DNA of 62,175 bases from Elusimicrobiota bacterium (lineage in GTDB: Bacteria; Elusimicrobiota; Elusimicrobia; UBA1565; UBA9628). Under the pieces are notes generated by a model. That model had not been told where the DNA came from, searched no databases, and was given only the letters and a program-made list of their open reading frames with translations. A program made the position numbers and the translations under genes. How positions within the stretch are numbered: the first letter of the stretch is position 1; each line of letters begins with the position of its first letter. Positions 35,751 through 58,332 of this stretch are shown one piece after another. The stretch is taken from the NCBI GenBank assembly GCA_016182905.1, contig JACPFR010000042.1, positions 1 to 62,175 of the forward strand, written 5' to 3'.

Positions 35751-35758
35751 AACGCTCC

Positions 35759-38700
35759 TTAGGGCTGGGACGGCTGCTTGGCTTTGGGATGGAAGGCCAG
35801 CTCGAGGCTCTCGAGCGGGTCTCCCTCGGTGGAGATCATGACGGGCGTGAGGCGCGAGGCGGCGAAGGCGGCCTCGACGGCGGCCTCGCGGCGATTGACG
35901 GCGGCGGCGGCCTCGGCGCGTCCGGCGCGCGAGGAGGTGTCGAGCATGCGGGTCGCCCCCGTCTCGGCGTCGACGACGGGCAGCAGGCCCACGTCGGGCA
36001 GGGGGCCCAGCTCGGCCGGGTCGGTCACGCGGATGGCGCGCACGTCGTGGCGCGAGGCGATGGCGCCGAGCGCGTCCTTGAAGTCGGGGGCTATGAAGTC
36101 GGAGAGGACGGCGACCATGGCGCGCGAGCCGAGCAGCTTGCCCGCGGCCTCGAGACCCGGCTTCAGGTCGGTGGCCTTGCCCGTCGGCTCGCCCTTGAGG
36201 ATGGCGTCGACGATGGTCATCGCGTGGCGGGAGCCGCCGCGCGCGGGGATGACCTGTTCGACGCGGTCGGAGACGAGGACGAGGCCGACGCGGACGTTGG
36301 AGTGGGCGGCGGCCAAGGCGAGGACCGCGGCGGCGTCCTCGATGGCGGCGCGCTTGTCGGTCCCGCGCGTGCCGAAGCGGCCGGAGCGGCTGACGTCGAC
36401 GACGAGCATGAGCGGCATGTCGCGCTCGAGCTCGAACTTCTTCGCGTAGAGCTCGTCTTTCTTGGCGGAGGTCTTCCAGTCGATCTCGCGCATGTCCTCG
36501 CCCTGGTAGGGACGGGCCTCGGCGAAGTCCGTGCCGCCGGCGCCGATGAAGCGGGAGCGGAAGTTCCCGCCGTTGACGGCGGTGGCCATGCGGCGGGCGA
36601 CGAGCTCGATGCGGCGGTGGCGCGCGATCACGGCGCCGGGGACGGACTCGCGCGCGGCGGCTTCGCTCTCCTCGGCCTTCATGGCGGGCAGCATCTTCCA
36701 GACCAGGTACGCGGCGGCGAGGCCGATGACGGTGAAGATGAGGATCGGGGCGAGGCCCAAGGCGGGGAGCGCGGCCAGCGCCAGCGGCGCGAAGGCGTAG
36801 GTCTTGCCGGACTTCGCGTCGAAGGCGGCCAAGGCGCGGTCGGCGGCGGCCAGCGCCGCCTCCACCGTCTTCTTCTCCTCGTCGGTGAGCGCGCGGCGCG
36901 TCGTGCCGTCGCTCTCCCAGCCCTGGCCGCTCGCCAGTATGCCGGAGAGGAAGCCGCGCAGCTTCACGATCTCGGCGCGGGTGTAGACCTGGCGGTGATC
37001 GGAAGGGCCGTTGCCGGAGCCGGCGTCCATCAGGCCGAGGGCGCGGAGCTGCTCGTTGAACACGGCGCCGGGGAAGACCTGATAGCCCTTCTGGAGGGGG
37101 TCGTTGACGAGCTCGGCGGAGACCTCGCCGGGGGTGTCGCCGGAGAGGACGCCGGACGCCGTCGCGGCGGCCTCGAGCAGGGGCAGGAGGCGGGCGGCGC
37201 GCTCGGAAGCGGCGCGCTGCTCGGCCGTCGGCTTCTTGACCTTCGCGGCGGCCGCGGCGATGCCGGCGCGCAGCTCGCGGTAGTGGCGCAGCTTGAACTC
37301 GCCGCGCCAGGAGTCGTCGTCCTCGCGGACGCCGGAGGCGATCAGCGCCTTGTTGAGCGTCGCGAACCGCTTCTCGGCGTCCTCGCCCAAGGACTGCGCG
37401 GTCTTCTCCGCGTCCTCGGCGACGGACTCGAGGAGCTCCTTGGCGCGGGGCGTCTTGAGCGCCGAGACCAAGGCGGACAGCTCGGCCTCCTCGGAGGAGG
37501 TGCCCTTGACCGCGAGCCGGATGGAGCCGAGGACGCCCGCGGCGTCGGCGGCGTCGCCGGGGCGCGCGGCGAGGAGCGCGAACATCGTCTCCTGGGCCTT
37601 GAGCGCGAAGGCGGCGTCGCCCTTATGCTTCTCGAGCTCGATCGAGAGGCGCGCCAGCGCCAGGGCTTCCTGGCCCGGGCGGCTCACGGCGCCGAGCAGG
37701 TCCGCCGCGACGGGAGCGGCGGCGACGCCGAAGCGGGCGGCCAGGATCGCGTCGACGCGGTCGAGCGCGTTGGCGAGGTAGACCTTCTCGGCGAGCTTGA
37801 GCTCGCGGGCTTCCTTGCCGAGGCCGGCGTTGGCCTTCGCCGCGCCGGCGAGCCAGGTCCGGACCGCCTCGAGCTCGGCGCGGGTGTAGGTCTGGCGGTA
37901 GTCGGAGAGCGTGTTGCCGGCGCCCGGCATCAGGCCGGCGGCGCGCAGGGCCTCGTTGAACTCGGAGCCGGGGAACAGGCGCCAGCCGGCGAGCAGGACC
38001 ACGTTGGCCTCGTCGGCGGCGAGCTCCCCCGCGGTGTCGCCCGCCGGGGCGCCCGCCAGGGCCGCGAGCTTCGCGTAGCGGGCCAAGGTCATCGCGTCCT
38101 CGCCGGTCAGGGCCTCACCGACGGCCCGGAAGTGGCGCAGCTTGACGTCGGGGCGCCAGGCGCTCTCGCTCTCGCGCACGCCGGCGGCGGCGAGCTTGGC
38201 CTTGAGGCCCGGGGTCGCGGCCTCGGCCTTCTCGGCGACCGCGTGCAGGCCGTCGACGGCGAGCTTGAGCGCGGCGGCCTGGAAGGCCGCGCCGTTGGGG
38301 GCCTTGAGCGCGACGGCGAGCGCGTCGAGGGCGGCGGCTTCCTGCGGCGTTCCCTTGAGGGCGGCGAAGACCTGGACCAGCAGGGCGGACGCGTCGGCGG
38401 CGTCGACCGGGCCCTGGGCGGCGCGGGCGAACAGGCGCGCCGACACCGAGACGGCGGTCGCGGGACTCGCGCCGGCCGTCAGCTCGCGCGACAGGCGCGC
38501 CAAGGCGAGCGACTCGTCGGCGATCGGCGAACCGGGCTGCGCGTCGGGATATATCCTGCGCTGCGCCGCGTCGAGGTCCTCGAGCGCGCCGGCCAGGTAG
38601 AGCTTCTCGGACCAGGTCAGGGCCCGAGCCTTGCCCTCGGAGTCCCAGCCGCTGCCGGAGCGGGCGATCGTCAGCAGCAGCTCGCGCAGCTTGGTCAGCT

Positions 38701-41700
38701 GGGCCGCGTCGAGCGCCTCGGGGTAGGCCAGCTGGCTCGACAGGTCGCCGGAGGCGGGGGCCAGGCCCGCCTCGCGCAGGGCGCGCAGGAAGGAATGCCC
38801 GGTGAACACGCCGTCGCCCTGCTTCAGGAGGGGGTAGAGCTGCTCGGCCGCGGCCTCGGGGGCGGTGCCGCCCTCCATCATGCCGGCCTTGACGCCGGCC
38901 TCGAGGCCCTGCTCGACGACCATGCCGGCGCGCTCGAGGAGCTCGCGCGCGGCGAAGTTCTCCTTCGTCGGGGCCTTCGCCGCGGGAGCGCCCAGCTCCT
39001 CGACGGCGGCCAGCAGGGCGCGCAGGTGGGCGAGCTTGTACACCTCGCGGTAGTTCTGGGTCGTGCTCGTGCCGCCGCCGTAGTAGCCGCCGAAGCGCCC
39101 GCCGTGGCCGTGGTAGTCGTCGTAGCCGTCGTAGCCGCCGCCGTAGGAGCTCTGGGTGTCGGGGAGCACGACGCCGTCCTTGACGAGGCGCTCGTGCAGG
39201 CCGGGGAAGACCTTCTCGGCGTCCTTGATAAGGTCGGTCGTCGCCTTCGCGACCAGGTAGCGGGCGGCGCCGGCGAGCGCCGCGGGCGCGCCGCCGTCGC
39301 CCTGCAAAGTCGAGGCGAGGTTGGCGAGCATCGCGACCATGGACGGCGGGGCCTGGACCTCCTGGTCCGGGGGCGTCTGCTTGTAGATCTCCAGGCGCGC
39401 CGCGTCGATCGCGCGCGCGTTGACGAGCGCCTTGTCGAGGAAGGACTTGGCCTTGACCAGGTCGGCCTCGCCCACGCCCGGCTCGGTCAGGCGGCGGAAG
39501 GCGAAGCTCGCCGTCCACATCTGGAGCGCCGGGTCGCCGGCGTGCTTGGCCTGCGCCGCCTCGAGGCCCTCGTAGAACTTGGCGCCCGCGTTGCGCGAGA
39601 GCTGGGCGTACAGCGCCCCCGCGGCCTGCTGCTGGACCTGCTTGTTCGGGCTCTTGAGCACGCGGAAGAGCTGGACGAAGGTCCGCTCGTTGCCGACCTC
39701 GACGCCGAGGACGACGAGCTTGACGAGCATCTGGGCCGAGGCGGCGTCGGCGCGCGACTGCGCGATCAGGGCGTCCATCGAGGCCCACAACAGGTCGCTC
39801 TCGCGCTCGATGAGGGCGCGCAGCATCGTGTTCTCGGCCTGCTGGTTGAGCGGGAGGACGCCGGAATGGCGGAAGATCGCGACCAGGATGTTGTCGGCCT
39901 TCGGGTCCGGCGACTCGCGCAGGATGGTCAGCGCGCGCTCGAAGTCGTCGCCGGCGGTCTTCGGCGACTCGTGCCAGCGCTTGAGGGCGGGGATGACCTC
40001 CTCGGTGATGCGCGCGTCGACGTAGCGGTCGGAGAAGACGAACAGGTCCTCGGCGTAGAATAGCCGCATCGCGGCCTCGGCCGCCGCCCGCTGCTCGACG
40101 CGGAAGTTCATCGTCCCGACCGTGGAGACGCCGGTGATCACGATCATCAGGCTGAGCACCGCGACCGTGGCACCGCGCTTGAGGCGCGACCAGAGGCCGG
40201 GAGCCTTCGCGAGAGGCTTCGGGGCCTCGAAGGCGACCGGTTGTCCCGCGGCGACGGCGTTGAGGGCCGAGAGGCGGGCCTCGGCGTCGGAGTGGGCCAT
40301 CCAGGAGATCTGCGCCTTGCGCAGGCCCATGCGCGCGGCGATCGGGGCCAACGGCTCCAGGCGCAGACGCGCGGTGCGGCGCAAGGCGGTCAGGACTTTT
40401 TCGAGGGTTTCCGCCGACGCGCCGGAAAGATAAACGGCGGTGAGCTTCTCGCGCCACAAGGCCTCGTCGTGGGAGGCGAGTGCAATCATCGTCTCGCGCA
40501 GGGGCTCCTTGGCGTCCTGCCAGCCCCTGACGAAGGCGGTCAGGCGGCGCTCGTCGGCCTCGCGCAGGTCGTACAGGTGGATCAGGTCGGCGGAGACGCC
40601 TTTCTCGACGAAGCCGCGGCGGCTCTGCCACCACTCGCGCACGCTCCGGGTGATCTTGCCGCCGCTCCAGGAGTCGGCGGCGAGGTAGGCGGCGACGACC
40701 GTCGCCAGCGCGGCGAAGGGCAGTATCTGGGGCCAGGCCCCGAGAGGGATGAGCGCCGCGCCGAGCAGGCCCGCCGCGCCGGGGCCTTTCTTCTTATCCT
40801 TCGCCTGGCCGCGCTTGAGGAGGGAACGGCCGGGCAGCACGAGGTCGAGGATGAGCATCAGCAGCGCGGGCCAGAGCAGGTACACGCCGACGGGGCTCGG
40901 GGACTTGATCAGGTCGCCCTTCTGGCCCTTCTCGAGGCGGGAGACCTCGCTTAAGATGTTGTCGATCGAGGCCTTGCCGCCGGCGGCGAAGTAGGCGCCG
41001 CCGGTGCGCTCGGCGAGCTGGCGCAGCGGGGCTTCGTTGAGACGCGTGATCGCGGGCTGGCCGGTCTTGGCGTCGATCAGGTACTCGGTGCCGGTCCCAT
41101 CGGCCGTCGGCATCAGGATCTTCGTGCCCGCGGGGTCGCCGACGCCGATCGCGTAGACGGTGACGCCGTGCTCGGAGGCGGCGGCGATCGCGGCCGAGAT
41201 CTCGCCGGCGGTCACGTCGCCGTCGGAGATCACGATCATGATGCGCTGGCGGTCGCCGAGCTTCTTGGCCGTCTCGAAATGCTCGGCGGCGTACTTGATC
41301 CCGGAGGCGAGGTCGGAGCCCTCGCCGATGCCGCGGGCCTCGACGTCGAGCCGGTTGATCTTGAACTCGAAGTTGCCGTAGTCGATGGAGATCGGAGACG
41401 CCGTGCGCGACTTGCCGGCGAAGACGACGAGGCCGACCCGGTCCGTGCCCTGCAGGCGGGTGATGAACTCGTTGAGCTCCTTCTGCGTCTTCTCCGCGCG
41501 GCCGTCCTCGGCGTACATCATGCTGTGGGAGCCGTCGACGGTGACGACGATGTCCTTGCCGCCGAAGTTGACGCGCTCGTCGACCATGCCGCCTCTAGGG
41601 TCGCCGGCGGCCAGGCCGATCAGGCCCGCGGCCGCCAGAGCGAGCGCCGACTTGCCGAGGAAGCGGCGCGCCCCCCACCAGGAGGAGAAGGTCTTGGGCG

Positions 41701-44700
41701 CGGCGCCGGGGCTCAAGCGCTTGGCCGCGTCCAGGCGCTTCTTGATCCCCCAGGCGACGAGCAGGATCAGGACGGGCAGGCCGATGCCGACGACCCACAG
41801 GAACAGGGACGAGGAGAACACCAGGCCCTGGCCGGCGAAGGCGAGCGGCAAAGCGCCGATGCCCCACACGCCGGAGCCCTTGCGGGTCATGCCCTTGCGC
41901 GCGGCGTCCTTCTCGCCCTTCTCCTGGTCGCCGAGCGCCTCGCCGAGCTTGTCGGCGCCTTCCTTGGGATCGCCGGGCTTGGCCTGGGGTTTTCCATCGC
42001 CCGGCTTGCCGTCTCCCGGTTTCCCGTCCCCGGGCTTGCCGTCGCCCGGTTTGCCGTCGCCCGGTTTGCCGTCGCCGGGTTTGCCGTCGCCCGGCTTGCC
42101 GTCGCCGGGTTTTCCCTTCTGCTTGCCCGGCTTGCCCTTCTTGGAGTCCTTGGAATCCTTCTGCTGTTCCTGCTGCTCCTTCTGCTGCTGCTTGAGGGCC
42201 TCCAGGTTCCACTTCGCGTCCATGTTGGTCGCGTCGCGGCGCAGGGCTTCCTTGTATAGCTCGATCGCCTTCTCGCCGTCCTTGGCCATCAAAGCCGAGT
42301 TCGCGAGGTTGAAGAGGGTCTGGGACTGCTTCTTCGCGTCCGGCGTCAGGGAGAGGTACTTGGCCCAGGCCGCGTCGGCCTTCGCGTTCTCGCCGAGGCG
42401 CAGGTAGGCGTCGGCCATGTTGAAGTAGATCTCGGGAACGTCGGGGTGGCGCTCGACGGCCTCGCCGTACTTCTTGAGGGCCTCGGCGAAGCGGCCCTGG
42501 TTGTAGAGCCGGTTGCCCTCGATGACCTCGGCCGGGACCGCGGCGGTGACCGACTCGTGAGCCTCGGAGTGCGCCTGCGCCATGGTCATGGTGACGGCGG
42601 AGGGCGCCGTCCGGACCGCGTTCAGCGCGTCCATCGGCGCCTGATTGAGGGCCATCATGAACGCCAGGCCGTAGAGCGTGCGCAGCCGCGTGTTGGCGAG
42701 GGTCAGCTCGGCGCCGATGAGCAGGAAGGCGAGGAGTGCCAGCAGGCTCGTGTAGTCCTTGATCGAGACGGCGGAGACGATCTTGGCCGGGCTCTTCTCG
42801 AGGCGGGCGATCTCGAGCAGGACCTCACGCATCGCGTTCGCGTCGCCGGCGCGGTAGAACTTGGCGCCCGTCTTCTCCGCCACGCCGCGCAAGGTCGCCT
42901 CGTTGAAGGACTCGTTGGGCCCGGCGATGCCCACGCCGTAGACCTTGACGCCCAGGGAGGCGGCGATCTGCGCGGCGGCCTGCGGGTCGATGCCGGAGTT
43001 GGAGTCGCCGTCGGTGAAGAGCACGACGATCTTGGCGCGCTCCGGCTGCAGGATGGTCTTGAGCAGATCGGGGTGCTGCTTGGCGTAGGCGAGCGCGGCC
43101 GGCAGGCCCTGGTCGCGGAGCAGGCGCTGGACCTCGGCGGCGCGCGGGTCCTTCTTGCCGTCGAGCTCGAGCGCGTTGAGCTCGAGGAAGTGCGCGATCG
43201 CCGTCAGCATCGACTTGCCGATCGCCGTCGAGCCCGTCGTCTGCAGTTCCTTGAGATGCGAGATCAGCGCGTCGTAGTCGGTGGTCAGCTTGACGTCGAG
43301 GTAGGCCTCGTCGGAGAAGGTGACCATGCCGACGCGGTTCTCGGTGCCGCGGCGCTGCTCCTCGACGTAGCCCTTCACCGCGTCGCGCACGCCCTGGAGC
43401 TTGTCGCCGCTCATCGAGCCGGACAGGTCGATGGACACCATCGTGTCGGTCGACGGGACGAAGGTCTCGGTGCGCTCGGTGCCGATCATGGGCCGCGCGA
43501 GCGCGATGAGGATCAGGCCCACGGCGGCGTAGCGCAGCACGCGCGGCAGCCCGGCGAGGCGCTCGCGCAAGGTGCGCTTGGACGGCGTCTGGGCGGAGGA
43601 GGAGACGGCGAAGCGCGCGCCCTGGGCGCGGCTGCGCCACGACCACACGAGGTAGCCGAGGTACGGGATCAGCAGGAGCAGGACCCAGGGAGAGCCGAAG
43701 GTCAGGCCGGCCGCGCCGGGAAGCAAGGCCAGCATGCCGAGCATGCCGGCGCCCGGCGCCTTGGGCTTGCCCGCCTTGCCCGCGACGCTCGCGACGAGGG
43801 CCTGCAGGCGCTCGATCATGCGCCCGCGCTCGGCGGCGTCCGTCTCCGAGCCGGCGAAGCGCGCGGCCTCGGCTTGGGCCGCCAAGCGGGCGGCGACGCT
43901 CGCCTGACCCGCGTCGTAGAAGGACTTGCGCAGGTCGCGCTCGAGCGTGCGCGCGTCGCGCGCCGCCTTGGGCAGGCCGGCGAAGTCGACCATGAACCGC
44001 GTCAGGAGGTCCTGGTAGCGGGCATAGAAGGAAGCGGCGTCGAGGTCGGCGGACTCGGCTTTCAGGCGCGCCAGCTCGGTCTCGGTGACGGTGACGAGCG
44101 ACAGGCGCTGGGCGTCGAGCTTCGGGTACAAGCGGCGCGCCGCGACGAGGCGGTGCACGCCGACGAAGAGCAGGAGGCCGAGCGGGATCGCCGCCAGCCA
44201 CATCCAGTCCGGGCCGTTGGCGCGCTTGACGCCGACGATGTCGCGCAGGCCCTTCTGCTTCCAGTCCGGCGTGAGCACGGTCGCGACCTTGATCTCGGTC
44301 TTGGGCAGGACGATCTCGATGCCCTCGGGGTAGACGGCCGTCTCGCCGACGGCCACGACGGCGATGCCGCCCTCCAAAGTCAGCGTTCCGGACCCGAAAG
44401 GGATCGCCTCGTAGACGACGGTCTTGGTCTCGCCCGGCGCCAAGGTCAGCGGCGCCTCGGCGCCCTTGCCCTGGAGCTCGAGGTCCGCGGGCACCGCCTC
44501 CTGCAAAGACGAGCGCAGGTTGTGCAAGGTGACCGGCTTGTCCGAGGTATTGCGGAGCGTGATCGTCAGGTGGATGCGCTCGCCGACGGTCACGCCCTGG
44601 CGGTCGACGGACGCCTGAGCCTCGAGCGGGCGGGGCAGGACGACGCGGGCCGTGTCGGCGGCGGGCGCCGGGGCCGGAGCGGGGGCGGCTTGAGCCGGGG

Positions 44701-45421
44701 CCGCCTGGGCCTGAGCGGCGAGAGCCTGGAGCTTCTGCTTGGCGGCCTGCCGGGCGGTCGAATCGGCCAACCCTTGGGCGATCCGGCCGTGGGGCGCGGG
44801 CTGCGGAAGCGGGGCGGTCTGGGCGGCGGCCTGATGCTGGGCGCCGAGCAGGCCGATCGAGAGCGCGAGGATGGCGAGGCCTTTCTTGACCGCGCGGCCG
44901 AAACCGCCTCGAGGAGCCGGGACGGAGCCGCCGGCGACGGCCTTGGCGGACGCGCCGTCGAACAGGCGCGCGGCGTCGACGACCTTTTCGGGAACGGCGG
45001 CGGCGGACAGATCGCGGACGAGCGCCGAAGGCGCGAAAACGGCGGGCGGGCCGGTCTTGGCGGCGTTCGTCAGCGGCGCCTGGGCCGGGACGACGCGGAC
45101 CGGCCCCATGGGCACGGCCGCGGACGCGGCGGCCGCGCGGGCCGGGATCGCCAGGGCCGCCGCGGCGCGGACCTCGGGCGCGGCCGCGGGAGAGGAGAGC
45201 GCGGGAGAGACGGAGAGCGCCGAGGCCGACAGAGAGGGGACCGGAGAGGAGAGGTCCGACAAGCCGAGGACGGGGACCGCGCGCGCGGAGGAGGCCGTCC
45301 CGGCGGCGCGTCCCGCGGCGGTCTGCGCCGCGGCCTGGTAGGCCGACGAGCCCGGCGCGCCCGCCACGATGGCGAGCGACAACAGCGCTCCGAGCAAGCG
45401 GCGCAGAGGGAAGCGCCTCAT
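35759..45421 (-). CDS. Giant BatD-BatA-BatC-BatB-DUF58 fusion protein
   Basis: A 3,220-residue single frame joining what are usually separate bat operon products. Order: signal peptide and Ala/Pro tract with VDAARLFDGA (148-157); BatD-like beta domain plus helix (about 265-430); BatA-like VWA with DLSGSMSG (Asp665) between two helices; TPR BatC-like unit (about 960-1075) with repeated GKPGD (1100-1141); BatB-like VWA with VDGSHSMM (Asp1296); an unrecognised helical region with three related repeats (about 1600-2870); then a helix and a DUF58 domain (YQGEDMREIDWK near 2974, VVDVSRSGRFG near 3005). Followed by moxR. Envelope complex; function inferred from the Bat family. Confidence 0.85.
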   Translation of the reverse strand: MRRFPLRRLLGALLSLAIVAGAPGSSAYQAAAQTAAGRAAGTASSARAVPVLGLSDLSSPVPSLSASALSVSPALSSPAAAPEVRAAAALAIPARAAAASAAVPMGPVRVVPAQAPLTNAAKTGPPAVFAPSALVRDLSAAAVPEKVVDAARLFDGASAKAVAGGSVPAPRGGFGRAVKKGLAILALSIGLLGAQHQAAAQTAPLPQPAPHGRIAQGLADSTARQAAKQKLQALAAQAQAAPAQAAPAPAPAPAADTARVVLPRPLEAQASVDRQGVTVGERIHLTITLRNTSDKPVTLHNLRSSLQEAVPADLELQGKGAEAPLTLAPGETKTVVYEAIPFGSGTLTLEGGIAVVAVGETAVYPEGIEIVLPKTEIKVATVLTPDWKQKGLRDIVGVKRANGPDWMWLAAIPLGLLLFVGVHRLVAARRLYPKLDAQRLSLVTVTETELARLKAESADLDAASFYARYQDLLTRFMVDFAGLPKAARDARTLERDLRKSFYDAGQASVAARLAAQAEAARFAGSETDAAERGRMIERLQALVASVAGKAGKPKAPGAGMLGMLALLPGAAGLTFGSPWVLLLLIPYLGYLVWSWRSRAQGARFAVSSSAQTPSKRTLRERLAGLPRVLRYAAVGLILIALARPMIGTERTETFVPSTDTMVSIDLSGSMSGDKLQGVRDAVKGYVEEQRRGTENRVGMVTFSDEAYLDVKLTTDYDALISHLKELQTTGSTAIGKSMLTAIAHFLELNALELDGKKDPRAAEVQRLLRDQGLPAALAYAKQHPDLLKTILQPERAKIVVLFTDGDSNSGIDPQAAAQIAASLGVKVYGVGIAGPNESFNEATLRGVAEKTGAKFYRAGDANAMREVLLEIARLEKSPAKIVSAVSIKDYTSLLALLAFLLIGAELTLANTRLRTLYGLAFMMALNQAPMDALNAVRTAPSAVTMTMAQAHSEAHESVTAAVPAEVIEGNRLYNQGRFAEALKKYGEAVERHPDVPEIYFNMADAYLRLGENAKADAAWAKYLSLTPDAKKQSQTLFNLANSALMAKDGEKAIELYKEALRRDATNMDAKWNLEALKQQQKEQQEQQKDSKDSKKGKPGKQKGKPGDGKPGDGKPGDGKPGDGKPGDGKPGDGKPGDGKPGDGKPQAKPGDPKEGADKLGEALGDQEKGEKDAARKGMTRKGSGVWGIGALPLAFAGQGLVFSSSLFLWVVGIGLPVLILLVAWGIKKRLDAAKRLSPGAAPKTFSSWWGARRFLGKSALALAAAGLIGLAAGDPRGGMVDERVNFGGKDIVVTVDGSHSMMYAEDGRAEKTQKELNEFITRLQGTDRVGLVVFAGKSRTASPISIDYGNFEFKINRLDVEARGIGEGSDLASGIKYAAEHFETAKKLGDRQRIMIVISDGDVTAGEISAAIAAASEHGVTVYAIGVGDPAGTKILMPTADGTGTEYLIDAKTGQPAITRLNEAPLRQLAERTGGAYFAAGGKASIDNILSEVSRLEKGQKGDLIKSPSPVGVYLLWPALLMLILDLVLPGRSLLKRGQAKDKKKGPGAAGLLGAALIPLGAWPQILPFAALATVVAAYLAADSWSGGKITRSVREWWQSRRGFVEKGVSADLIHLYDLREADERRLTAFVRGWQDAKEPLRETMIALASHDEALWREKLTAVYLSGASAETLEKVLTALRRTARLRLEPLAPIAARMGLRKAQISWMAHSDAEARLSALNAVAAGQPVAFEAPKPLAKAPGLWSRLKRGATVAVLSLMIVITGVSTVGTMNFRVEQRAAAEAAMRLFYAEDLFVFSDRYVDARITEEVIPALKRWHESPKTAGDDFERALTILRESPDPKADNILVAIFRHSGVLPLNQQAENTMLRALIERESDLLWASMDALIAQSRADAASAQMLVKLVVLGVEVGNERTFVQLFRVLKSPNKQVQQQAAGALYAQLSRNAGAKFYEGLEAAQAKHAGDPALQMWTASFAFRRLTEPGVGEADLVKAKSFLDKALVNARAIDAARLEIYKQTPPDQEVQAPPSMVAMLANLASTLQGDGGAPAALAGAARYLVAKATTDLIKDAEKVFPGLHERLVKDGVVLPDTQSSYGGGYDGYDDYHGHGGRFGGYYGGGTSTTQNYREVYKLAHLRALLAAVEELGAPAAKAPTKENFAARELLERAGMVVEQGLEAGVKAGMMEGGTAPEAAAEQLYPLLKQGDGVFTGHSFLRALREAGLAPASGDLSSQLAYPEALDAAQLTKLRELLLTIARSGSGWDSEGKARALTWSEKLYLAGALEDLDAAQRRIYPDAQPGSPIADESLALARLSRELTAGASPATAVSVSARLFARAAQGPVDAADASALLVQVFAALKGTPQEAAALDALAVALKAPNGAAFQAAALKLAVDGLHAVAEKAEAATPGLKAKLAAAGVRESESAWRPDVKLRHFRAVGEALTGEDAMTLARYAKLAALAGAPAGDTAGELAADEANVVLLAGWRLFPGSEFNEALRAAGLMPGAGNTLSDYRQTYTRAELEAVRTWLAGAAKANAGLGKEARELKLAEKVYLANALDRVDAILAARFGVAAAPVAADLLGAVSRPGQEALALARLSIELEKHKGDAAFALKAQETMFALLAARPGDAADAAGVLGSIRLAVKGTSSEEAELSALVSALKTPRAKELLESVAEDAEKTAQSLGEDAEKRFATLNKALIASGVREDDDSWRGEFKLRHYRELRAGIAAAAAKVKKPTAEQRAASERAARLLPLLEAAATASGVLSGDTPGEVSAELVNDPLQKGYQVFPGAVFNEQLRALGLMDAGSGNGPSDHRQVYTRAEIVKLRGFLSGILASGQGWESDGTTRRALTDEEKKTVEAALAAADRALAAFDAKSGKTYAFAPLALAALPALGLAPILIFTVIGLAAAYLVWKMLPAMKAEESEAAARESVPGAVIARHRRIELVARRMATAVNGGNFRSRFIGAGGTDFAEARPYQGEDMREIDWKTSAKKDELYAKKFELERDMPLMLVVDVSRSGRFGTRGTDKRAAIEDAAAVLALAAAHSNVRVGLVLVSDRVEQVIPARGGSRHAMTIVDAILKGEPTGKATDLKPGLEAAGKLLGSRAMVAVLSDFIAPDFKDALGAIASRHDVRAIRVTDPAELGPLPDVGLLPVVDAETGATRMLDTSSRAGRAEAAAAVNRREAAVEAAFAASRLTPVMISTEGDPLESLELAFHPKAKQPSQP

Positions 45422-51446: not shown

Positions 51447-51836
51447 CTAGGGCCTGACCGCGACGGCGTCGATCTCGACGGCGGAGCCCTTGGGCAGCGC
51501 CGAGACCTGCACGGTCGCCCGCGCCGGGAACGGCGCCCGGAAGCGCTTCGCGTAGACCTCGTTCATCTCCGCGAACTTCCCGAGGTCGGTCATGTACACC
51601 GTGGTCTTGACCACGTCGTCCATGGTCAGGCCCGCGGCCAGCAGGACCTCGAGTATGTTCTTCAGGCACTGCTCGGTCTGCTCGGCCACGCTGCCGTCGA
51701 CGAAGGAGCCGTCGGCGCGCAGCGGCGTCTGGCCCGAGACGAAGACCATGTCGCCGGCGGAGACGCCCTGGGAGTACGGCCCGATCGCCCCCGGCGCCTT
51801 CCCCGTGATGACCGGCAGGATTTTTTTGTCGCCCAT
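51447..51836 (-). CDS. RidA-family enamine/imine deaminase
   Basis: A 129-residue protein of the RidA/YjgF family: GPYSQGVSAGDMVFVSGQTPL at the start, AEQTEQCLKNILEVLLAAG, VYMTDLGKFAEMNEVYAKRF and FPARATVQVSALPKGSAVEIDAVA, with the Arg of PARATVQV in place. It should hydrolyse reactive enamines from PLP enzymes. AAGGA lies upstream of the ATG. Rho's end hairpins lie just before it. Confidence 0.9.
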   Translation of the reverse strand: MGDKKILPVITGKAPGAIGPYSQGVSAGDMVFVSGQTPLRADGSFVDGSVAEQTEQCLKNILEVLLAAGLTMDDVVKTTVYMTDLGKFAEMNEVYAKRFRAPFPARATVQVSALPKGSAVEIDAVAVRP

Positions 51837-51861: not shown

Positions 51862-51876
51862 GCCCGGAATCCGGGC
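51862..51876 (-). terminator. Rho-gene terminator hairpin GCCCGG-ATT-CCGGGC
   Basis: On the minus strand a six-base perfect stem with a 3-base loop is followed by TTCTCTT, downstream of rho and before the RidA-like gene. Likely an intrinsic terminator with a modest U-tract. Confidence 0.55.
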
Positions 51877-51912: not shown

Positions 51913-53118
51913 TCATTTCAGGGACTCCAGCAGAGCCTTGTTGGTCTTGTGCACGCGCATCATCTCGGTCAGCGCCTTGATCGCCTCGATGTCGCCCATG
52001 CCCGCCACGAGGCGGCGCAGCTTGTAGACGCCCTCGAGGTACTCCGGGGTGAACAGCTTCTCCTCCTTGCGGGTACCGCTGTCGCGGACCTTGAGCGCCG
52101 GGAAGATGCGCTGCTCGGCGGCCTGACGGTACAGCACCAGCTCCATGTTGCCCGTCCCCTTGAACTCCTGGAAGATGATGTCGTCCATCTTCGAGCCGGT
52201 GTCCACGAGGATGGTCGCCAGTATGGTCAGCGAGCCCGCGCCCTCGAGCTTGCGCGCCGCGCCGAAGAAGCGGCGCGGGATCTCCATCGCGCGCGAGTCG
52301 AGGCCGCCCGACATCGTGCGGGACCCCGTCGCGAACTGGTTGTACACGCGCGCCAGGCGCGTGAGGGAGTCGAGCAGGATGAAGACGTCCTCCCCCTCGA
52401 CGACCTTCTGGAGCGCCGTGCGGAACAGGTCCTCGGCGATCTTCTTGTGCTGCTGGTAGCTCTGGTCGGACGAGGAAGCCCACACCTCGGCGGGCACGGA
52501 ACGCTTGAAGTCCGTGACCTCCTCGGGGCGCTCGTCGACCAGGAGGCAGTACTGGCGCACCTTCGGGTCGATCTCCTTGATCGCGTTGGAGACCTGCTTG
52601 AGGAACGTGGTCTTGCCGGCCTTCGGAGGGGCGACGATGAGGCCGCGGGTGCCCTTGCCGATGGGAGCCAGAAGGTCGAGCGCCCGCATGGACGGGTCGG
52701 TCGAGCCCTTCTCGAGCTGGAACCACTGGTAGGGATCGACGGGCGTCAGCGCCGAGAACGCCTGCTCGACGTCGGAGCGCACGGGCGCCTGGGGGACCTG
52801 GGGAGGGCGGGAGCCGTTCTGCTGCTGCTGGCGATTGCCGCCGCCGTAGTGCTGGCCGCCCTGGCGCTGACCATGCTGCTGGCCTCCCTGGTGTTGGCCT
52901 CCGCCCTGGCCGCCGCTGCGGCCGCGTCCGCCGCGGCGACGCCGCCGGCGCCGGCCTTGGCCGTCGCCGCCGCCTCCGTGCTGCTGCTGGCCGCCTTGGT
53001 GGGCGGCTCCGCCGCCCCCGCCGCCTTGGGACTGCTGACGGGGCGGCTGGTCGCCGCTCCCGCCGCCCGGAGGGTTCGACCCCGCCGCGCCGCCTTGTCC
53101 CGTCGTCTCTTCGTTCAT
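51913..53118 (-). CDS. rho: Transcription termination factor Rho, disordered N-terminus
   Basis: A 401-residue RecA-type hexameric helicase. From residue 119 it is ordinary Rho: ALDLLAPIGKGTRGLIV, Walker A APPKAGKT (163-170), DVFILLDSLTRLARVYN, and the Q-loop/R-loop block VDTGSKMDDIIFQEFKGTGN. Residues 1-115 are Gly, Arg, Gln and His-rich disorder with an Arg run at 56-62. The N-terminal helix bundle and the cold-shock RNA-binding domain of Rho are absent. The ATG at 53118 is preferred; 53121 is next to it. GAGAGG upstream may be the ribosome site. Confidence 0.88.
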   Translation of the reverse strand: MNEETTGQGGAAGSNPPGGGSGDQPPRQQSQGGGGGGAAHQGGQQQHGGGGDGQGRRRRRRRGGRGRSGGQGGGQHQGGQQHGQRQGGQHYGGGNRQQQQNGSRPPQVPQAPVRSDVEQAFSALTPVDPYQWFQLEKGSTDPSMRALDLLAPIGKGTRGLIVAPPKAGKTTFLKQVSNAIKEIDPKVRQYCLLVDERPEEVTDFKRSVPAEVWASSSDQSYQQHKKIAEDLFRTALQKVVEGEDVFILLDSLTRLARVYNQFATGSRTMSGGLDSRAMEIPRRFFGAARKLEGAGSLTILATILVDTGSKMDDIIFQEFKGTGNMELVLYRQAAEQRIFPALKVRDSGTRKEEKLFTPEYLEGVYKLRRLVAGMGDIEAIKALTEMMRVHKTNKALLESLK

Positions 53119-53126
53119 CATCTCTA

Positions 53127-53723
53127 TTATCCTCTCGAAATCTTCGCGCCCGTCCACATCTCCTCGGCTCCGGGGAATTCCCCGGCCCATCGCGAGTCGA
53201 GCGCTTTCAGCGCGTGACCCAAAAACACGGCCGCCGCGGGCAGCACTTCCTCGGCGCGCCGCCCCGGCCGCGTCGCATCGGAGAACACGTGGCCCCAGGG
53301 CAGGCCCTGCGCCGAGCCGCGGGCGAAATCGACGACGGAGCCGAGCACGGCCTCGACGGCCTCGCCCGGCACCGCGTACGCCTCGGCCCGCTCGCGCAGG
53401 CGCGCGCTCGGCCAGTGGGTCTCCCAGTCCGGGTCCTGCAGCTCGGCCAGCGAGGCGACGGCGCGCGCGGTCGAGTCCTTCTCGGCGACCCAGCGCATCA
53501 TCAGGCAGATCTCCGCGATCCCGCGGAGGATCGGGAGGGCCTCGTTGGCGAGCCCGCGCTCGCTGAGCGCCATGACGGCGTTCGCCTGGGCGATCGCGCG
53601 CGCGGCCATGATCATCAGGGCGCGGTCGGCGGGGTCGGACGCGGACAGCCTCCGCCCGACGCGGGAGAAGCCCGCGTCCATGCGGACCTTGGCAAGACCC
53701 GTCAAAGCGAGCATGTCTTTCAT
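53127..53723 (-). CDS. DUF5677-like helical protein
   Basis: A 198-residue all-helical protein. ARAIAQANAVMALSERGLANEALPILRGIAEICLMMRWVAEKD matches the DUF5677 pattern (helices around the RxxxE-type LPILRGIAE). The domain is related in style to HEPN proteins and has no settled function. ATG overlaps the murI stop (ATGA), and its end touches the rho leader. Confidence 0.6.
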   Translation of the reverse strand: MKDMLALTGLAKVRMDAGFSRVGRRLSASDPADRALMIMAARAIAQANAVMALSERGLANEALPILRGIAEICLMMRWVAEKDSTARAVASLAELQDPDWETHWPSARLRERAEAYAVPGEAVEAVLGSVVDFARGSAQGLPWGHVFSDATRPGRRAEEVLPAAAVFLGHALKALDSRWAGEFPGAEEMWTGAKISRG

Positions 53724-54526
53724 GAATCGAACCGGTGCAGGCCGACCTTGGGGACGGACGTCCCGAGCATGCGGCGGGCCAGGCGCTGGAAGCGCTTCGG
53801 CGCGTCGGACGCGTAGAACTCGCGGCGGCCGCGCCCGCCCCGGGGCGCGCGCAGGCCGAGGTCGCAGAGGATCGTCTCCGTCTCGCGCGCGGTCTCCTCC
53901 GCCGAGTCGATGAGCCGCACGCGCGAGCCGAGCGCCCGGGCCAGGACCGGCTTGAGGTACGGGTAATGCGTGCAGCCGAGGATCACGACGTCCACGCGGG
54001 CCTTGCGCAGCGGGGCCAGGTACCTGCGGGCCACGGACTCGACGACGTCCCCGCTCCACCAGCCCTCCTCGACGAGCGGCACGAACAGGGGGCACGCGGC
54101 CGACGCGGTGCGCGCGCCCTTCTTGAGCGCCCGGATCGCCTTCTCGTAGGCGCCGGACTTGACCGTCGCCTCGGTGCCGATGACGCCGATGCGCCCGCCG
54201 CGCGAGACGCCGAGCGCCCCGCGCGCGCCGGGCTCGATGACGCCGACGACCGGGACCTTCACGGCCCGGCGGATCGCCGGCAGGGCCCACGCCGAGGAGG
54301 TGTTGCAGGCGACGACCAGGAGCTTGATGCCGCGCTTGGCGAGGAAGCGGGCCACCTCGCTGGAGTACCGCGCGATCGCCTCGGGGGACTTCGAGCCGTA
54401 GGGGACGTGCGCGGTGTCGCCGAAATAGATCAGGGACTCCTCGGGCATGCGCCGGGCGAGGACCTTGAACACTGTCAGGCCGCCGAGGCCCGAGTCGAAC
54501 ACGCCGATCGGGGACTTTTTTCTCAT
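53720..54526 (-). CDS. murI: Glutamate racemase
   Basis: A 268-residue enzyme that makes D-glutamate for peptidoglycan. IGVFDSGLGGLTVFKVL, YFGDTAHVPYGSKS, the first catalytic Cys in VVACNTSSAWAL and the second in ILGCTHYPYLKPVL. The N-terminus MRKKSPIG is chosen since its ATG overlaps the amidase stop; three upstream codons are also open. Lies between an amidase and RNase G/E in the envelope-growth cluster. Confidence 0.92.
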   Translation of the reverse strand: MRKKSPIGVFDSGLGGLTVFKVLARRMPEESLIYFGDTAHVPYGSKSPEAIARYSSEVARFLAKRGIKLLVVACNTSSAWALPAIRRAVKVPVVGVIEPGARGALGVSRGGRIGVIGTEATVKSGAYEKAIRALKKGARTASAACPLFVPLVEEGWWSGDVVESVARRYLAPLRKARVDVVILGCTHYPYLKPVLARALGSRVRLIDSAEETARETETILCDLGLRAPRGGRGRREFYASDAPKRFQRLARRMLGTSVPKVGLHRFDS

Positions 54527-56079
54527 TCGAGCCACCCCTGACGCTTCGCGTATTCCGCGACGCCCGCCGCCACGCCCTCGGCCATCGTGCGCCGGAACCG
54601 GCGGGAGGTCAGCTTCGCCTCGTCCTTCGCGTGGCTCACGAAGGCCATCTCGACGAGTATGGCCGGCGCGTGCGTGCCGCGCAGGACGTAGAAGCCCGCC
54701 TGCTTGGCCCCGCGCGCCTCGATGTCGACGCGCTTGCCGATCGTCCTATCGGCAAGCGCGGCGAAAGCCGCGCTCTCGTTGATCATCTCGGTCTTCGTCA
54801 TCGCCAGCAGGATCATCTTCGCCATCTCGTCCTGGGGGTTCTTGCCCTCGAGCTCGAGGACGGCGTTCTCGGAGGCCGCCAGGGCCTCGGCCGCGGGGTC
54901 GGACGCGGTCTCGGAGACCGAGTAGACCTCGAAGCCGCTCTCGCGCTTGTTCCCGGCCGCGTTGCAGTGCAGCGAGACGAACAGGTCCGCGCTGCGGCTG
55001 TTGGCGAGCTCCGAGCGCTCCGACAGCGGCAGGAACACGTCCTCCTCGCGCGTCAGCAGCACGTCGAAGTCGCCGCGCTCCTTGAGGACGCGGGAGAGCT
55101 CGAGGGCCGCGGCGAGGTTCACGTCCTTCTCGCGCGTGCCCCGCGCGCCCGTGGCGCCGGGGTCCTTGCCGCCGTGGCCGGGATCGATGACGATCAGGCG
55201 GCGCCGCTTGGGAGCCTCCTTCGGCGCCTGCGTCCCGGTCCTCGCGGACGGCCTCGCCGCGGGAGCCGCGACGGCGGCCTTCGGCGTCTCCGTCGGGGGC
55301 TCCTCCTCCGCCGCGGCGGCGGGCGCCTCGGGAAGGGACGCCCCGGGGGCGTAGACGTCGAGGACCGCGCGGCGCGGATCGGACAGCTCCGAGGCGCGCC
55401 AGCGCTGGCCGGTCTCCGCGAAGCGGACGGACAAGCGCACGAGCTTGGCCTCCTGCTTGAGCGTGTAGGACTCGATGATCCCGTCGTCGACGCTTCCCTT
55501 GTCGTCGCCCTCGGCGACGCCGAAGTCCACGACGAGGTCGACCCCGCCGGTGCCGCGCGCGGCCGCGCGGTACGAGGCGCCGGGCGCCAGCTCGAGCGTG
55601 ATCCGGGTGTGCCCCTTGTACGAGAACGCCCGCGGCGAGCCGACCGTCCCCGTCTTCTCGACGAGCAAGGTCTTCGTCCTCTCGTCGTAGCGGGTCTGAT
55701 GGCCGCTCCACGACGCGAACTCCGGCCCCGTCAGGAACGAGAGGGGGACGAAGGCGCGCGAGGCGCGGACGATGACGGGGTCGCCCAGCTTTAGCTCCCG
55801 GTCCCCGGCCGCGGCCTTCTCCGAGCCGACCACGAGCTGCAAAGTGCGGCCGCGCAGGCTCAGCTGCACGCGGCCGGACACGGGATACCAATAGACCTGG
55901 CCGCCGTACAGCGCCCCGACGCGCTTGGCGTCGATGTACGCCCTGCCCCCCGCCCGGTAGGACTCCGCGGCCTCCTGGGCCTTGCCGGAGACGACGACGG
56001 CGATCTCCTCGGCGCGCGCCCGCAGGGGCGCGGCCGAGAGGATCGCGAGGGCCGCCGTCAGGAGGACGAGGTTCTTCAT
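54523..56079 (-). CDS. N-acetylmuramoyl-L-alanine amidase (Amidase_3) with AMIN-like domains
   Basis: A 518-residue periplasmic enzyme cleaving the amide between MurNAc and L-Ala. Signal peptide (LTAALAILSAAPLRARA); residues 25-120 look like the copper-amine-oxidase-N type fold (YIDAKRVGALYG, FVPLSFLTGPEFASW); 130-240 AMIN-like; a Pro/Ala linker; Amidase_3 from about 290: IDPGHGGKDPGATG, EKDVNLAAAL, FVSLHCNAAG and the late ILVEMAFVSH (zinc ligands His, Glu, His and catalytic Glu). Starts immediately after the RNase G/E stop. Confidence 0.88.
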   Translation of the reverse strand: MKNLVLLTAALAILSAAPLRARAEEIAVVVSGKAQEAAESYRAGGRAYIDAKRVGALYGGQVYWYPVSGRVQLSLRGRTLQLVVGSEKAAAGDRELKLGDPVIVRASRAFVPLSFLTGPEFASWSGHQTRYDERTKTLLVEKTGTVGSPRAFSYKGHTRITLELAPGASYRAAARGTGGVDLVVDFGVAEGDDKGSVDDGIIESYTLKQEAKLVRLSVRFAETGQRWRASELSDPRRAVLDVYAPGASLPEAPAAAAEEEPPTETPKAAVAAPAARPSARTGTQAPKEAPKRRRLIVIDPGHGGKDPGATGARGTREKDVNLAAALELSRVLKERGDFDVLLTREEDVFLPLSERSELANSRSADLFVSLHCNAAGNKRESGFEVYSVSETASDPAAEALAASENAVLELEGKNPQDEMAKMILLAMTKTEMINESAAFAALADRTIGKRVDIEARGAKQAGFYVLRGTHAPAILVEMAFVSHAKDEAKLTSRRFRRTMAEGVAAGVAEYAKRQGWLE

Positions 56080-58332
56080 CTATTCCAGGACGATGTGATA
56101 GTCCTCCCACATCAGGTTCGCATCGGACTGGATGCGCACGGCGCGCTGGACGTTCTTCTCGATGATGGGCTGCTGGGAGCGGAACGAGTCCGCGACCGAC
56201 GGATGCAGCGAGACCTTGATCGAGCCGCCGGGGCGCCCTCCCGTCATCTCGAAGATCTCGCGCTGGATCTTGATGCGGAGGGTCTCGACGGAGAGCACCC
56301 GTCCCGACGCCCGGCACTGCGGGCACTCGGTCGTGAGCAGGGCGGCGGTGGACATGCGCTTGCGCTCGCGCGTGAGCTCGATCAAGCCCAACCTCGTGAT
56401 AGGCAAAATGCGGATCTTGGCCCGGTCCCCCCGGCACGCGTCGGCGAACGCCTCCATGACCTTCGCGCGGTTGGACGCCTTGCGCATGTCGATGAAGTCG
56501 ACGACGATGATGCCGCCGATGTTGCGCAGGCGGATCTGGTTGGCCACGAGCGTGGCGGCCTCGATGTTGGTCGCCGTCACGGTCTCTTCCTGGGACTTGG
56601 AGCCCGTGAAGCGGCCGGTGTTGACGTCGATCGCGCACAACGACTCCGCCTCCTGGATCACGATCGAGCCGCCGTTGGGCAAAGACACCTTCGTCTCGCG
56701 GATCGTCTCGATCTGCTTCTCGATGTTGAAGGCCTTGAAGATCGGCGTCTTGGCCTCGTAGAGCTTGATGCGGTCCTTGAGCTCCGGGGCGAAGCCGTCG
56801 ACGAAGTCGATGACCTGCTTCTGCGACTCCTTGCTGTCGAGCAGGTACACGTACACCTGGTCCGACAGGACGTCGCGCGCGATCTGCATCGCGAGGCCCA
56901 GGTCGTTGTGCAGGATGGAGGGAGACGGCAGCTCCTCGTGCTTCTTCTGGACCGAGGCCCAGAGGTTCTGGAGGTACTTCACCTCGCGCTCGAGCTCCTC
57001 CTCGGTAGCACCCTCCGCCTCGGTGCGCACGACGACGCCCTTGCCGTTGAGATGCGCCTTCACGAGCTTGTCGACGATTTTCTCGAGGCGCTGGCGCTCC
57101 TCGGGCTCGGCGATGTGCTTGGAGATGCCGACGTACTCCTGGTAGGGAGTGAACACGAGGTACCGTCCCGGCAGGGACACGTCCATCGTGACCTTGGGCC
57201 CCTTGGTGCTGATCGCCTCCTTGGCGACCTGGACCATGACGGTCTGGCCCTTCTTCAGCGTCTGGTCGATCGGCGCGTTCTTGTCGCCGAGCACGTCGGA
57301 GATGTAGAGGTACGCGTTCTTCTCGAAGCCGATGTTGACGAAAGCCGACGAGATGCCGGGGAGCACGTTCTCGACCGTGCCCTTGTAGATGTTGCCGACG
57401 ATGTTCTGGGAGCTCTTGCGCTCCCAGTGGAGCTCGGCCAGGCGGCCGTTCTCCAGGATCGCGATGCGGGTCTCCTCGAAGCTGGTGTTCGCCAGCACCT
57501 CGCGCTTGACCGGGCCGCGCGTGCTCTTGCCGGCGTTGGTGCGCTCCATGCCGCGGTCGCGGCGCTCGTCGCGCCGCTCGTCGCGGTGGCGGTCGCCGCC
57601 GCGGCCTTCGCCGCGCCCGCGTCCGCCGTCCCGGCGCTCGTCGCGCCGTCCCTGCTGGTCGCGGCGTCCCTGATCGCGCCGCTGGTCCTGGCCGTGGCGC
57701 TCGTGGCGGTCGCGCCCGCCGCCCTGTTGAGGCTCCCGCCGCTCCTGGGGAGGCCGCTCGGGGGACGGCGTCTGTCCGGGGGCGCCCGGCGCCTGCGGAG
57801 CCGCGCCCGCCTGGCCGGTCTGAGGATTCTGACCGCCGCGGTCGCCGCCTCGCCCGCCGCGGCGGCGGCGCCGGCGCCGGCGGCCGCCTTCGCGGGGCTC
57901 GGAGCCGGGCTGGCCGGGGTTCGCCGGAGCCGCGGGCGCTCCGCCCTCGGCGGACGGAGCCGGCGCGGCGGCGGAGCCGGCGCCCGTCAGAGGGATCTCG
58001 ACGGAGACCTCGGGTCCCTCATCCTCGGCCTCCTCCTCGTCGTCCGAGTCTCCGGAGGCGTCGGAGGCCTGAGGGATGTCGCGGTCGGCCTCGACGGGGC
58101 CGTCGGCGCGAGGATAGAGGTCCTCGCGGGACGGGGCCTGAGGCGCGGGCGCAGGCGTCGGCGCGGCCGGCGCCGGCGCCTCGATGGCCGGCATGGGGGC
58201 GACGGCGGCGGGCGGAGGCGCAGCCTCCGCCCTTCCCGGAGTCGAGTCGTCGTGCACGCGGACCGGCTCGACGCGGGTCGGCGTCTCGACCGGCGCGTCG
58301 TTCTTCTGGATCTGATCGTTGTCGTTGGACAC
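56080..58332 (-). CDS. Ribonuclease G/E family protein with long disordered N-terminus
   Basis: A 750-residue protein. Residues 1-275 are disordered: Pro/Ala-rich then acidic (about 95-108), then Arg/Gly-rich with RRRRRRRGGRGG. From about 275: S1 domain (GNIYKGTVENVLPGISSAFVNIG), 5' sensor and DNase-I-like core (VDFIDMRKASNRAKVMEAF, DRAKIRILPITRLGLIELTR), and the zinc-link CPQCRASG. It is an RNA-processing endonuclease for mRNA decay or rRNA trimming. GTG start with GGAGG upstream; a longer frame without start signal exists. Confidence 0.88.
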   Translation of the reverse strand: MSNDNDQIQKNDAPVETPTRVEPVRVHDDSTPGRAEAAPPPAAVAPMPAIEAPAPAAPTPAPAPQAPSREDLYPRADGPVEADRDIPQASDASGDSDDEEEAEDEGPEVSVEIPLTGAGSAAAPAPSAEGGAPAAPANPGQPGSEPREGGRRRRRRRRGGRGGDRGGQNPQTGQAGAAPQAPGAPGQTPSPERPPQERREPQQGGGRDRHERHGQDQRRDQGRRDQQGRRDERRDGGRGRGEGRGGDRHRDERRDERRDRGMERTNAGKSTRGPVKREVLANTSFEETRIAILENGRLAELHWERKSSQNIVGNIYKGTVENVLPGISSAFVNIGFEKNAYLYISDVLGDKNAPIDQTLKKGQTVMVQVAKEAISTKGPKVTMDVSLPGRYLVFTPYQEYVGISKHIAEPEERQRLEKIVDKLVKAHLNGKGVVVRTEAEGATEEELEREVKYLQNLWASVQKKHEELPSPSILHNDLGLAMQIARDVLSDQVYVYLLDSKESQKQVIDFVDGFAPELKDRIKLYEAKTPIFKAFNIEKQIETIRETKVSLPNGGSIVIQEAESLCAIDVNTGRFTGSKSQEETVTATNIEAATLVANQIRLRNIGGIIVVDFIDMRKASNRAKVMEAFADACRGDRAKIRILPITRLGLIELTRERKRMSTAALLTTECPQCRASGRVLSVETLRIKIQREIFEMTGGRPGGSIKVSLHPSVADSFRSQQPIIEKNVQRAVRIQSDANLMWEDYHIVLE

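What the first reader, a model, noticed from the sequence alone, without database searches (positions are those of the whole stretch)
56080..58332. RG-rich disordered heads on both Rho and RNase G/E
Two RNA enzymes in the same gene cluster carry long Arg/Gly-rich disordered N-termini (residues 1-115 and about 145-275). Similar tracts drive condensates of RNA decay machinery elsewhere, so these may form a shared body.
Basis: partly seen in the sequence, partly recalled or inferred. Interest (0 to 1): 0.5.

Follow-up and report, generated by a model that had tools for sequence, protein, structure and literature searches.

The report
Short Rho lacking its RNA-binding domain
Next to an RNA-cutting enzyme, these bacteria keep a second, shortened copy of the Rho RNA motor that has lost the folded part Rho normally uses to grip RNA and carries a floppy glycine- and arginine-rich tail instead, which raises a testable question about how such a motor finds its RNA.

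Summary
The window's Rho is not the organism's ordinary Rho. It is a second Rho that lacks both Rho_N and the cold-shock RNA-binding domain (CSD, the primary RNA site); a 114-residue Gly/Gln-rich head with one Arg7 block sits directly on an intact ATPase motor. The canonical Rho, with both domains, lies elsewhere in the genome. The CSD-less Rho forms one clade: 28 of 28 sampled genomes of the window's order, 8 of 114 others of its class, 0 of 105 from other classes of Elusimicrobiota, plus one phage-like plasmid of a gammaproteobacterium. In the order it is linked to RNase G/E (same contig in 36 of 49 genomes; 0 of 14 outside), and RNase G/E has its own long head only there. An R5-GG-RG codon motif occurs exactly twice in the 3.98-Mb genome, once per head. 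Against a specific shared body: head compositions do not co-vary, and the head-length correlation is matched by neighbouring AmiC. Best reading: a Rho motor whose folded RNA grip was replaced by a disordered one, probably working with RNase G/E; condensation is untested.

The parts
51913..53121 (-). CSD-less second Rho (402 aa, MMNEETTGQ...); ATG at 53121 (or 53118)
   Evidence: only PF00006 passes its cut-off, no PF07497 or PF07498 even at E<=10
52780..53121 (-). Rho head, residues 1-114, Gly/Gln-rich, disordered, net +9
52922..52950 (-). Arg-block motif (R6-GG-RG) in the Rho head
51916..52779 (-). Rho ATPase core, residues 115-402; Walker A, catalytic Glu, Walker B, Q-loop and R-loop basic residues, Arg finger kept
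56080..58332 (-). RNase G/E (750 aa)
57505..58332 (-). RNase G/E head, residues 1-276: acidic Pro/Ala half (1-140), Arg/Gly half (141-276)
57848..57876 (-). Arg-block motif (R6-GG-RG) in the RNase head
58069..58128 (-). conserved short motif REDLYPRADGPVEADRDIPQ in the disordered RNase head (shorter RE-[ED]-x-YPRAD forms in other genera)
   Evidence: read directly
56083..57504 (-). RNase G/E catalytic core, residues 277-750
54523..56079 (-). amiC-type amidase, abuts rng
53720..54535 (-). murI-type racemase, overlaps amiC
53127..53735 (-). DUF5677 protein, stop about 5 bases before rho (start codon not settled)
51447..51836 (-). ridA, downstream of rho after a terminator-like site at 51862-51876

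Best explanation
The window encodes a second, core-only Rho: the ring-forming RNA-translocating ATPase without the N-terminal helical bundle and without the cold-shock (primary RNA-binding) domain. SHOWN: domain loss, intact motor residues, disordered basic head, coexistence with a canonical Rho in the same genome, monophyly, tight operon with RNase G/E in this order, and a shared Arg-block motif unique to the two heads. INFERRED: it hydrolyses ATP and pulls RNA through the ring using the secondary site (Q- and R-loops); the basic disordered head replaces the lost folded site by giving loose, sequence-unspecific RNA affinity or by bringing the motor to the RNA that RNase G/E is working on; it therefore acts as a dedicated unwinding or stripping partner of RNase G/E (RNA decay, or decay coupled to termination) while the canonical Rho does ordinary termination.
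For: No Rho_RNA_bind or Rho_N in the window Rho, both present in the canonical one; the genome holds one CSD only, in the other Rho. All 39 canonical cores are preceded by a CSD; none of the heads printed for the second Rho shows one (read by eye); Pfam finds none in the window protein or in 4 Elusimicrobia relatives tested. Motor residues aligned to E. coli Rho 1pv4: K170/K184, E197/E211, D251/D265, R268/K283, K311/K326, R338/R353, R351/R366 (roles recalled). AlphaFold core matches E. coli Rho at rmsd of mostly 1.2-1.6 over about 284 columns. Clade support 99/95 and 99/96. Linkage to rng on one contig in 36 of 49 order genomes that hold both, 0 of 14 in other families (counted by hand). RNase heads 89-323 aa in 35 of 35 measured order genomes, 2-32 aa in 38 of 38 other-family genomes. 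Shared motif 2 of 2 in the genome. Rho in degradosomes elsewhere.
Against: Outside the order the core-only Rho occurs with almost no head (f5, f6, f9) and with no RNase neighbour, so neither head nor RNase is needed for its basic job. In the operon, amiC, murI and DUF5677 lie between the two genes, and rng near cell-wall genes is ordinary (E. coli mre-rng, recalled). RNase-head gain looks like a single event on one branch, so the association has n=1. Composition does not co-vary; length co-variation is unspecific. No biochemical data.
Confidence: 0.42

Rival explanations
1. Core-only Rho is an independent RNA motor (R-loop or stalled-complex removal, or termination without rut sites) with no functional tie to RNase G/E; the head merely adds unspecific RNA affinity and the operon link is incidental.
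For: Same clade exists headless and unlinked in f5, f6, f9 and on a gammaproteobacterial phage-like plasmid; basic heads in f7, f8, f14 without an RNase head.
Against: Stable linkage through the order and a motif shared only by these two heads in the genome.
Confidence: 0.25
2. It is a modulator subunit: it joins rings with canonical Rho, diluting primary RNA sites and changing termination.
For: At least two Rho places in 40 of the 43 genomes at least 90% complete that hold the short Rho (counted by hand); interface residues such as the Arg finger are kept.
Against: Cores share only 48% identity and have 14 positions fixed differently; a mobile copy sits in a distant host.
Confidence: 0.15
3. 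One reading: the two heads co-condense with RNA into one decay compartment.
For: Disordered, Arg-containing heads on both, shared Arg block, condensing Rho and RNase E known elsewhere (RNase E from a search listing).
Against: Window RNase head is net negative overall (-4); no compositional co-variation; the Rho head has one RGG and almost no aromatics (fraction 0.01).
Confidence: 0.18
4. Neutral growth: linkers in these high-GC genomes expand without specific function and both heads are examples.
For: RNase and Rho head lengths rise with GC (Spearman 0.66, 0.44) and AmiC's non-catalytic part rises in step.
Against: Conserved Arg block and RNase motif, purifying dN/dS, positive charge kept at GC 0.49. 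Does not explain the domain loss.
Confidence: 0.15

Closest known systems
Canonical bacterial Rho (E. coli 1pv4; the Elusimicrobiota copy on contig C19)
   Same: ATPase motor, catalytic and secondary-site residues, fold
   Different: no helical bundle, no cold-shock primary RNA site; disordered head instead
NCBIfam NF041509 'paralog_Rho2', Rho short form
   Same: a second, shortened Rho
   Different: that model appears to span the CSD (the canonical Rho aligns to it from position 18, through its CSD); the window protein aligns only from position 69 of 360 and scores 299.5 against a 628 cut-off
Rho with a disordered insertion (Bacteroides, Actinobacteria, M. tuberculosis 7oqh)
   Same: long biased disordered region near the N-terminus
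   Different: there it lies between helical bundle and CSD, both kept (PMC10284900, whole text); here both are gone
Short Rho with CSD in Desulfobacterales (L065) and with a degenerate CSD in Verrucomicrobia (L064)
   Same: no Rho_N match; branch next to the core-only clade
   Different: CSD scores 52 bits and 16.7 bits; long branches, placement unsure
RNase E with disordered tails that form BR-bodies; degradosomes holding Rho (Caulobacter, Rhodobacter capsulatus)
   Same: RNase E/G with Arg-rich disorder and a Rho partner
   Different: there the Rho is the ordinary one and the RNase tail is C-terminal (both recalled); here a dedicated CSD-less Rho is encoded in the RNase operon and the RNase tail is N-terminal

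Membership tests
Transcription termination factor Rho | RecA-type ATPase core with Rho motifs | tested here: met
   NF006886 366 bits over cut-off 315
Transcription termination factor Rho | cold-shock primary RNA-binding domain PF07497 | tested here: not met
   absent at E<=10; the single genome hit is the other Rho
Transcription termination factor Rho | Rho_N helical bundle PF07498 | tested here: not met
Transcription termination factor Rho | TIGR00767 full-length equivalog cut-off | tested here: not met
   348.5 against 509.45
Transcription termination factor Rho | terminates transcription | not testable with these tools
   needs an in vitro termination assay
NF041509 paralog_Rho2 short form | score over curated cut-off | tested here: not met
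   299.5 against 628
Rne/Rng ribonuclease (rng product) | TIGR00757 and PF10150 cut-offs | tested here: met
   437.6 over 325.95; 316 over 25.5
RNase G equivalog (NF008689) | score over curated cut-off | tested here: not met
   405.9 against 594
Degradosome / BR-body component | physical association with RNase E/G, RNA-dependent condensation | not testable with these tools
   only linkage and shared motif

The most novel reading that the evidence does not exclude
Core-only Rho is a separate, partly mobile family of RNA motors that works without any primary RNA-binding domain. In one order of Elusimicrobiota it was captured into the RNase G/E operon, and both enzymes acquired matching Arg-block disordered tags that bring motor and nuclease to the same RNA: a dedicated degradosomal Rho.
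Probability: 0.3. Interest if true: 0.8.

Novelty: new variant of a known kind. Interest (0 to 1): 0.58.

Why it matters
Models of Rho hold that the primary site captures RNA and permits ring closure (recalled). A conserved natural Rho with that site deleted, kept beside an ordinary Rho, allows a direct test of what the primary site is needed for and whether a disordered basic tail can replace it. Its operon with RNase G/E makes Elusimicrobia a natural case for asking whether Rho can be a dedicated RNA-decay motor. The clade's presence on a phage-like plasmid suggests that such stripped-down Rhos also travel.

Tried and rejected
Rejected: that the Rho is a truncated or misassembled ordinary Rho. 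The same architecture is in a closed genome (CP096137.1, L039) and through the order; the upstream gene ends about 5 bases before its start, and no other CSD is encoded in the genome. Rejected: GC artefact of the heads. Rejected as evidence: head-length co-variation, because AmiC co-varies as well (n is only 11 of 18 loci, 7 had no readable motif, and in 2 of the 11 the chosen start leaves only 39 residues). Led nowhere: a loose Arg-run pattern (567 hits per strand) and a mis-designed one (0 hits, could not match the window itself), both replaced; the motif counts CGN codons only. Phage records with Rho are mostly unannotated short pieces that look bacterial, and were not used. Neighbour genes in other families show no conserved context (by eye). 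Start codons of heads were chosen by a Shine-Dalgarno heuristic and corrected by hand (one search gives wrong starts, for example for G020; corrected). The Moreira 2024 survey of Rho diversity could not be read; by its recalled abstract it reports a duplicated RNA-binding domain and disordered insertions. Its main text may mention core-only forms.

Full report
OBSERVATION. The finding's coordinates cover the RNase G/E gene (56080-58332, minus strand); the Rho gene is 3 kb downstream at 51913-53121. Composition: Rho residues 1-114 are Gly 34%, Gln 21%, Arg 11%, one RGG; RNase residues 1-140 are acidic and Pro/Ala-rich, residues 141-276 are Arg 27%, Gly 21%, 4 RGG. AlphaFold puts Rho residues 1-103 and nearly all of RNase residues 1-271 at pLDDT near or under 50 without secondary structure, while the cores are confident. 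The heads are coding and constrained: dN/dS 0.09-0.53 for the Rho head against 0.03-0.26 for its core in 12 comparisons, 0.16-0.44 against 0.05-0.29 for the RNase in 7.

WHAT THE RHO IS. Pfam finds only the ATPase domain over cut-off in the window Rho, even when listing to E<=10; the canonical Rho of the same genome (contig C19, 454 aa) has Rho_N, Rho_RNA_bind and ATPase. The motor looks intact: positions matching E. coli K184, E211, D265, K283, K326, R353 and R366 are kept, two of them as Arg for Lys or the like (the roles of these residues are recalled), and 34 diverse cores keep the main motifs invariant. The model's core superposes on E. coli Rho at mostly 1.2-1.6 angstrom. Fourteen positions are fixed differently between 65 short and 39 canonical Elusimicrobiota cores (the two sets were parted by score).

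DISTRIBUTION AND HISTORY. With a 34-row profile, 247 Elusimicrobiota genomes split cleanly: short-Rho scores of 475 bits or more, canonical 404 or less. By best match per genome, short Rho is in 28 of 28 genomes of the window's order, 8 of 114 others of its class and 0 of 105 of other classes (counted by hand). In the 97-genome set it is not seen in gut-type family f12 or in f15. The clade is one side of a branch in two trees (99/95, 99/96; both on thinned sets, 76 and 60 rows). The second tree includes a 319-aa Rho on Spartinivicinus ruber plasmid pB, next to terminase and holin genes, which also lacks the CSD and nests inside the clade (its exact place has support 86/55). Short Rhos with an intact (L065) or degenerate (L064) CSD branch just outside, suggesting loss of Rho_N, then of the CSD, then gain of heads; their long branches make this tentative. 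A viral contig Rho (L246) lacks the CSD too and falls elsewhere, so the loss may have happened twice. I found no paper on a CSD-less bacterial Rho paralog in searches; the most relevant survey (Moreira 2024) is not held.

HEADS. Rho heads are about 3-10 residues in families f5, f6 and f9 (start codons uncertain in G073, G074), about 22-71 in f7, f8 and f14, and 23-141 in f1-f3, where they are always basic (net +5 to +20, leaving aside loci cut by a contig end). RNase heads are 2-32 residues in 38 of 38 genomes of f4-f15 and 89-323 in 35 of 35 measured genomes of f1-f3 (genomes whose gene is cut by a contig or stretch end were left out). rng and rho lie on one contig about 2-6 kb apart in 36 of 49 genomes of f1-f3 that hold both; the other 13 have them on different contigs of draft assemblies. 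In other families 0 of 14 have them on one contig (counted by hand). Gene order is rng-amiC-murI-DUF5677-rho-ridA, with extra DNA between murI and ridA in f2 and DUF5677 not always found. In the window the genes from rng to rho overlap or nearly touch, no promoter-like site was found, and a terminator-like site follows rho. These scans are weak for a 70% GC genome.

SHARED MOTIF AND ITS LIMITS. The codon pattern for R5-G-G-R-G occurs exactly twice in the 3.98-Mb genome, once per head, with none for the reversed control. Across 35 genomes the head lengths correlate (Spearman 0.77, 0.72 given GC; independent contrasts 0.46, permutation 0.005) but Arg fraction (-0.17) and Gly fraction (0.19) do not, and the Arg-run contrast is 0.17. 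A control, the non-catalytic part of the neighbouring AmiC, correlates as strongly (0.82 with the Rho head, 0.60 with the RNase head, 11 of 18 loci readable). Length coupling is therefore no evidence for a shared body. The RNase head also holds a conserved motif, REDLYPRADGPVEADRDIPQ, in several genus members with shorter versions in other genera: a candidate docking site.

MECHANISM. Most likely an ATP-driven RNA ring motor whose disordered basic head supplies the RNA contact lost with the CSD, and which in this order works with RNase G/E. Precedent: Rho co-purifies with RNase E in Caulobacter, more so at low temperature, and is reported in the Rhodobacter capsulatus complex (PMC5472812 and PMC3071783, passages). 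Bacteroides Rho condenses through its disordered region (PMC13269538, abstract and introduction). PMC10284900 (whole text) places such regions between helical bundle and CSD. RNase E condensates (PMC10412687, PMC12510024) were seen in a search listing only. Partnership, condensation and RNA binding are inferred, not shown.

VERDICT. Observation confirmed; interpretation partly supported; the more interesting fact is the loss of Rho's primary RNA-binding domain in a conserved paralog. New variant of a known kind.

Noticed in passing
L238 3914-4873 (Spartinivicinus ruber plasmid pB): CSD-less 319-aa Rho beside terminase and holin genes, nesting inside the Elusimicrobia short-Rho clade: a mobile copy in a gammaproteobacterium.
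   Followed up: partly
L246 4977-5852 (132-kb IMG/VR contig): Another Rho without CSD (291 aa, Lys-rich start) from a different Rho lineage on a large viral contig.
   Followed up: partly
window 58069-58128 and 58234-58269: Conserved short motifs REDLYPRADGPVEADRDIPQ and EPVRVHDDSTPG inside the otherwise variable RNase head; possible partner-docking sites.
   Followed up: no
window 34254-45421: MoxR-type AAA ATPase next to one 3220-aa frame with DUF58, three VWA stretches and TPR repeats, probably a giant fused MoxR/VWA system.
   Followed up: no
window 30350-31306: Lower-GC stretch (0.51 at 30-32 kb against about 0.70 elsewhere) with an AEP-like primase hit (PF24387, just over cut-off); possible mobile element.
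   Followed up: no
Elusimicrobiota family f12 (for example G096): Small-genome family keeps RNase G with little or no head and a canonical Rho only; short Rho not seen.
   Followed up: no
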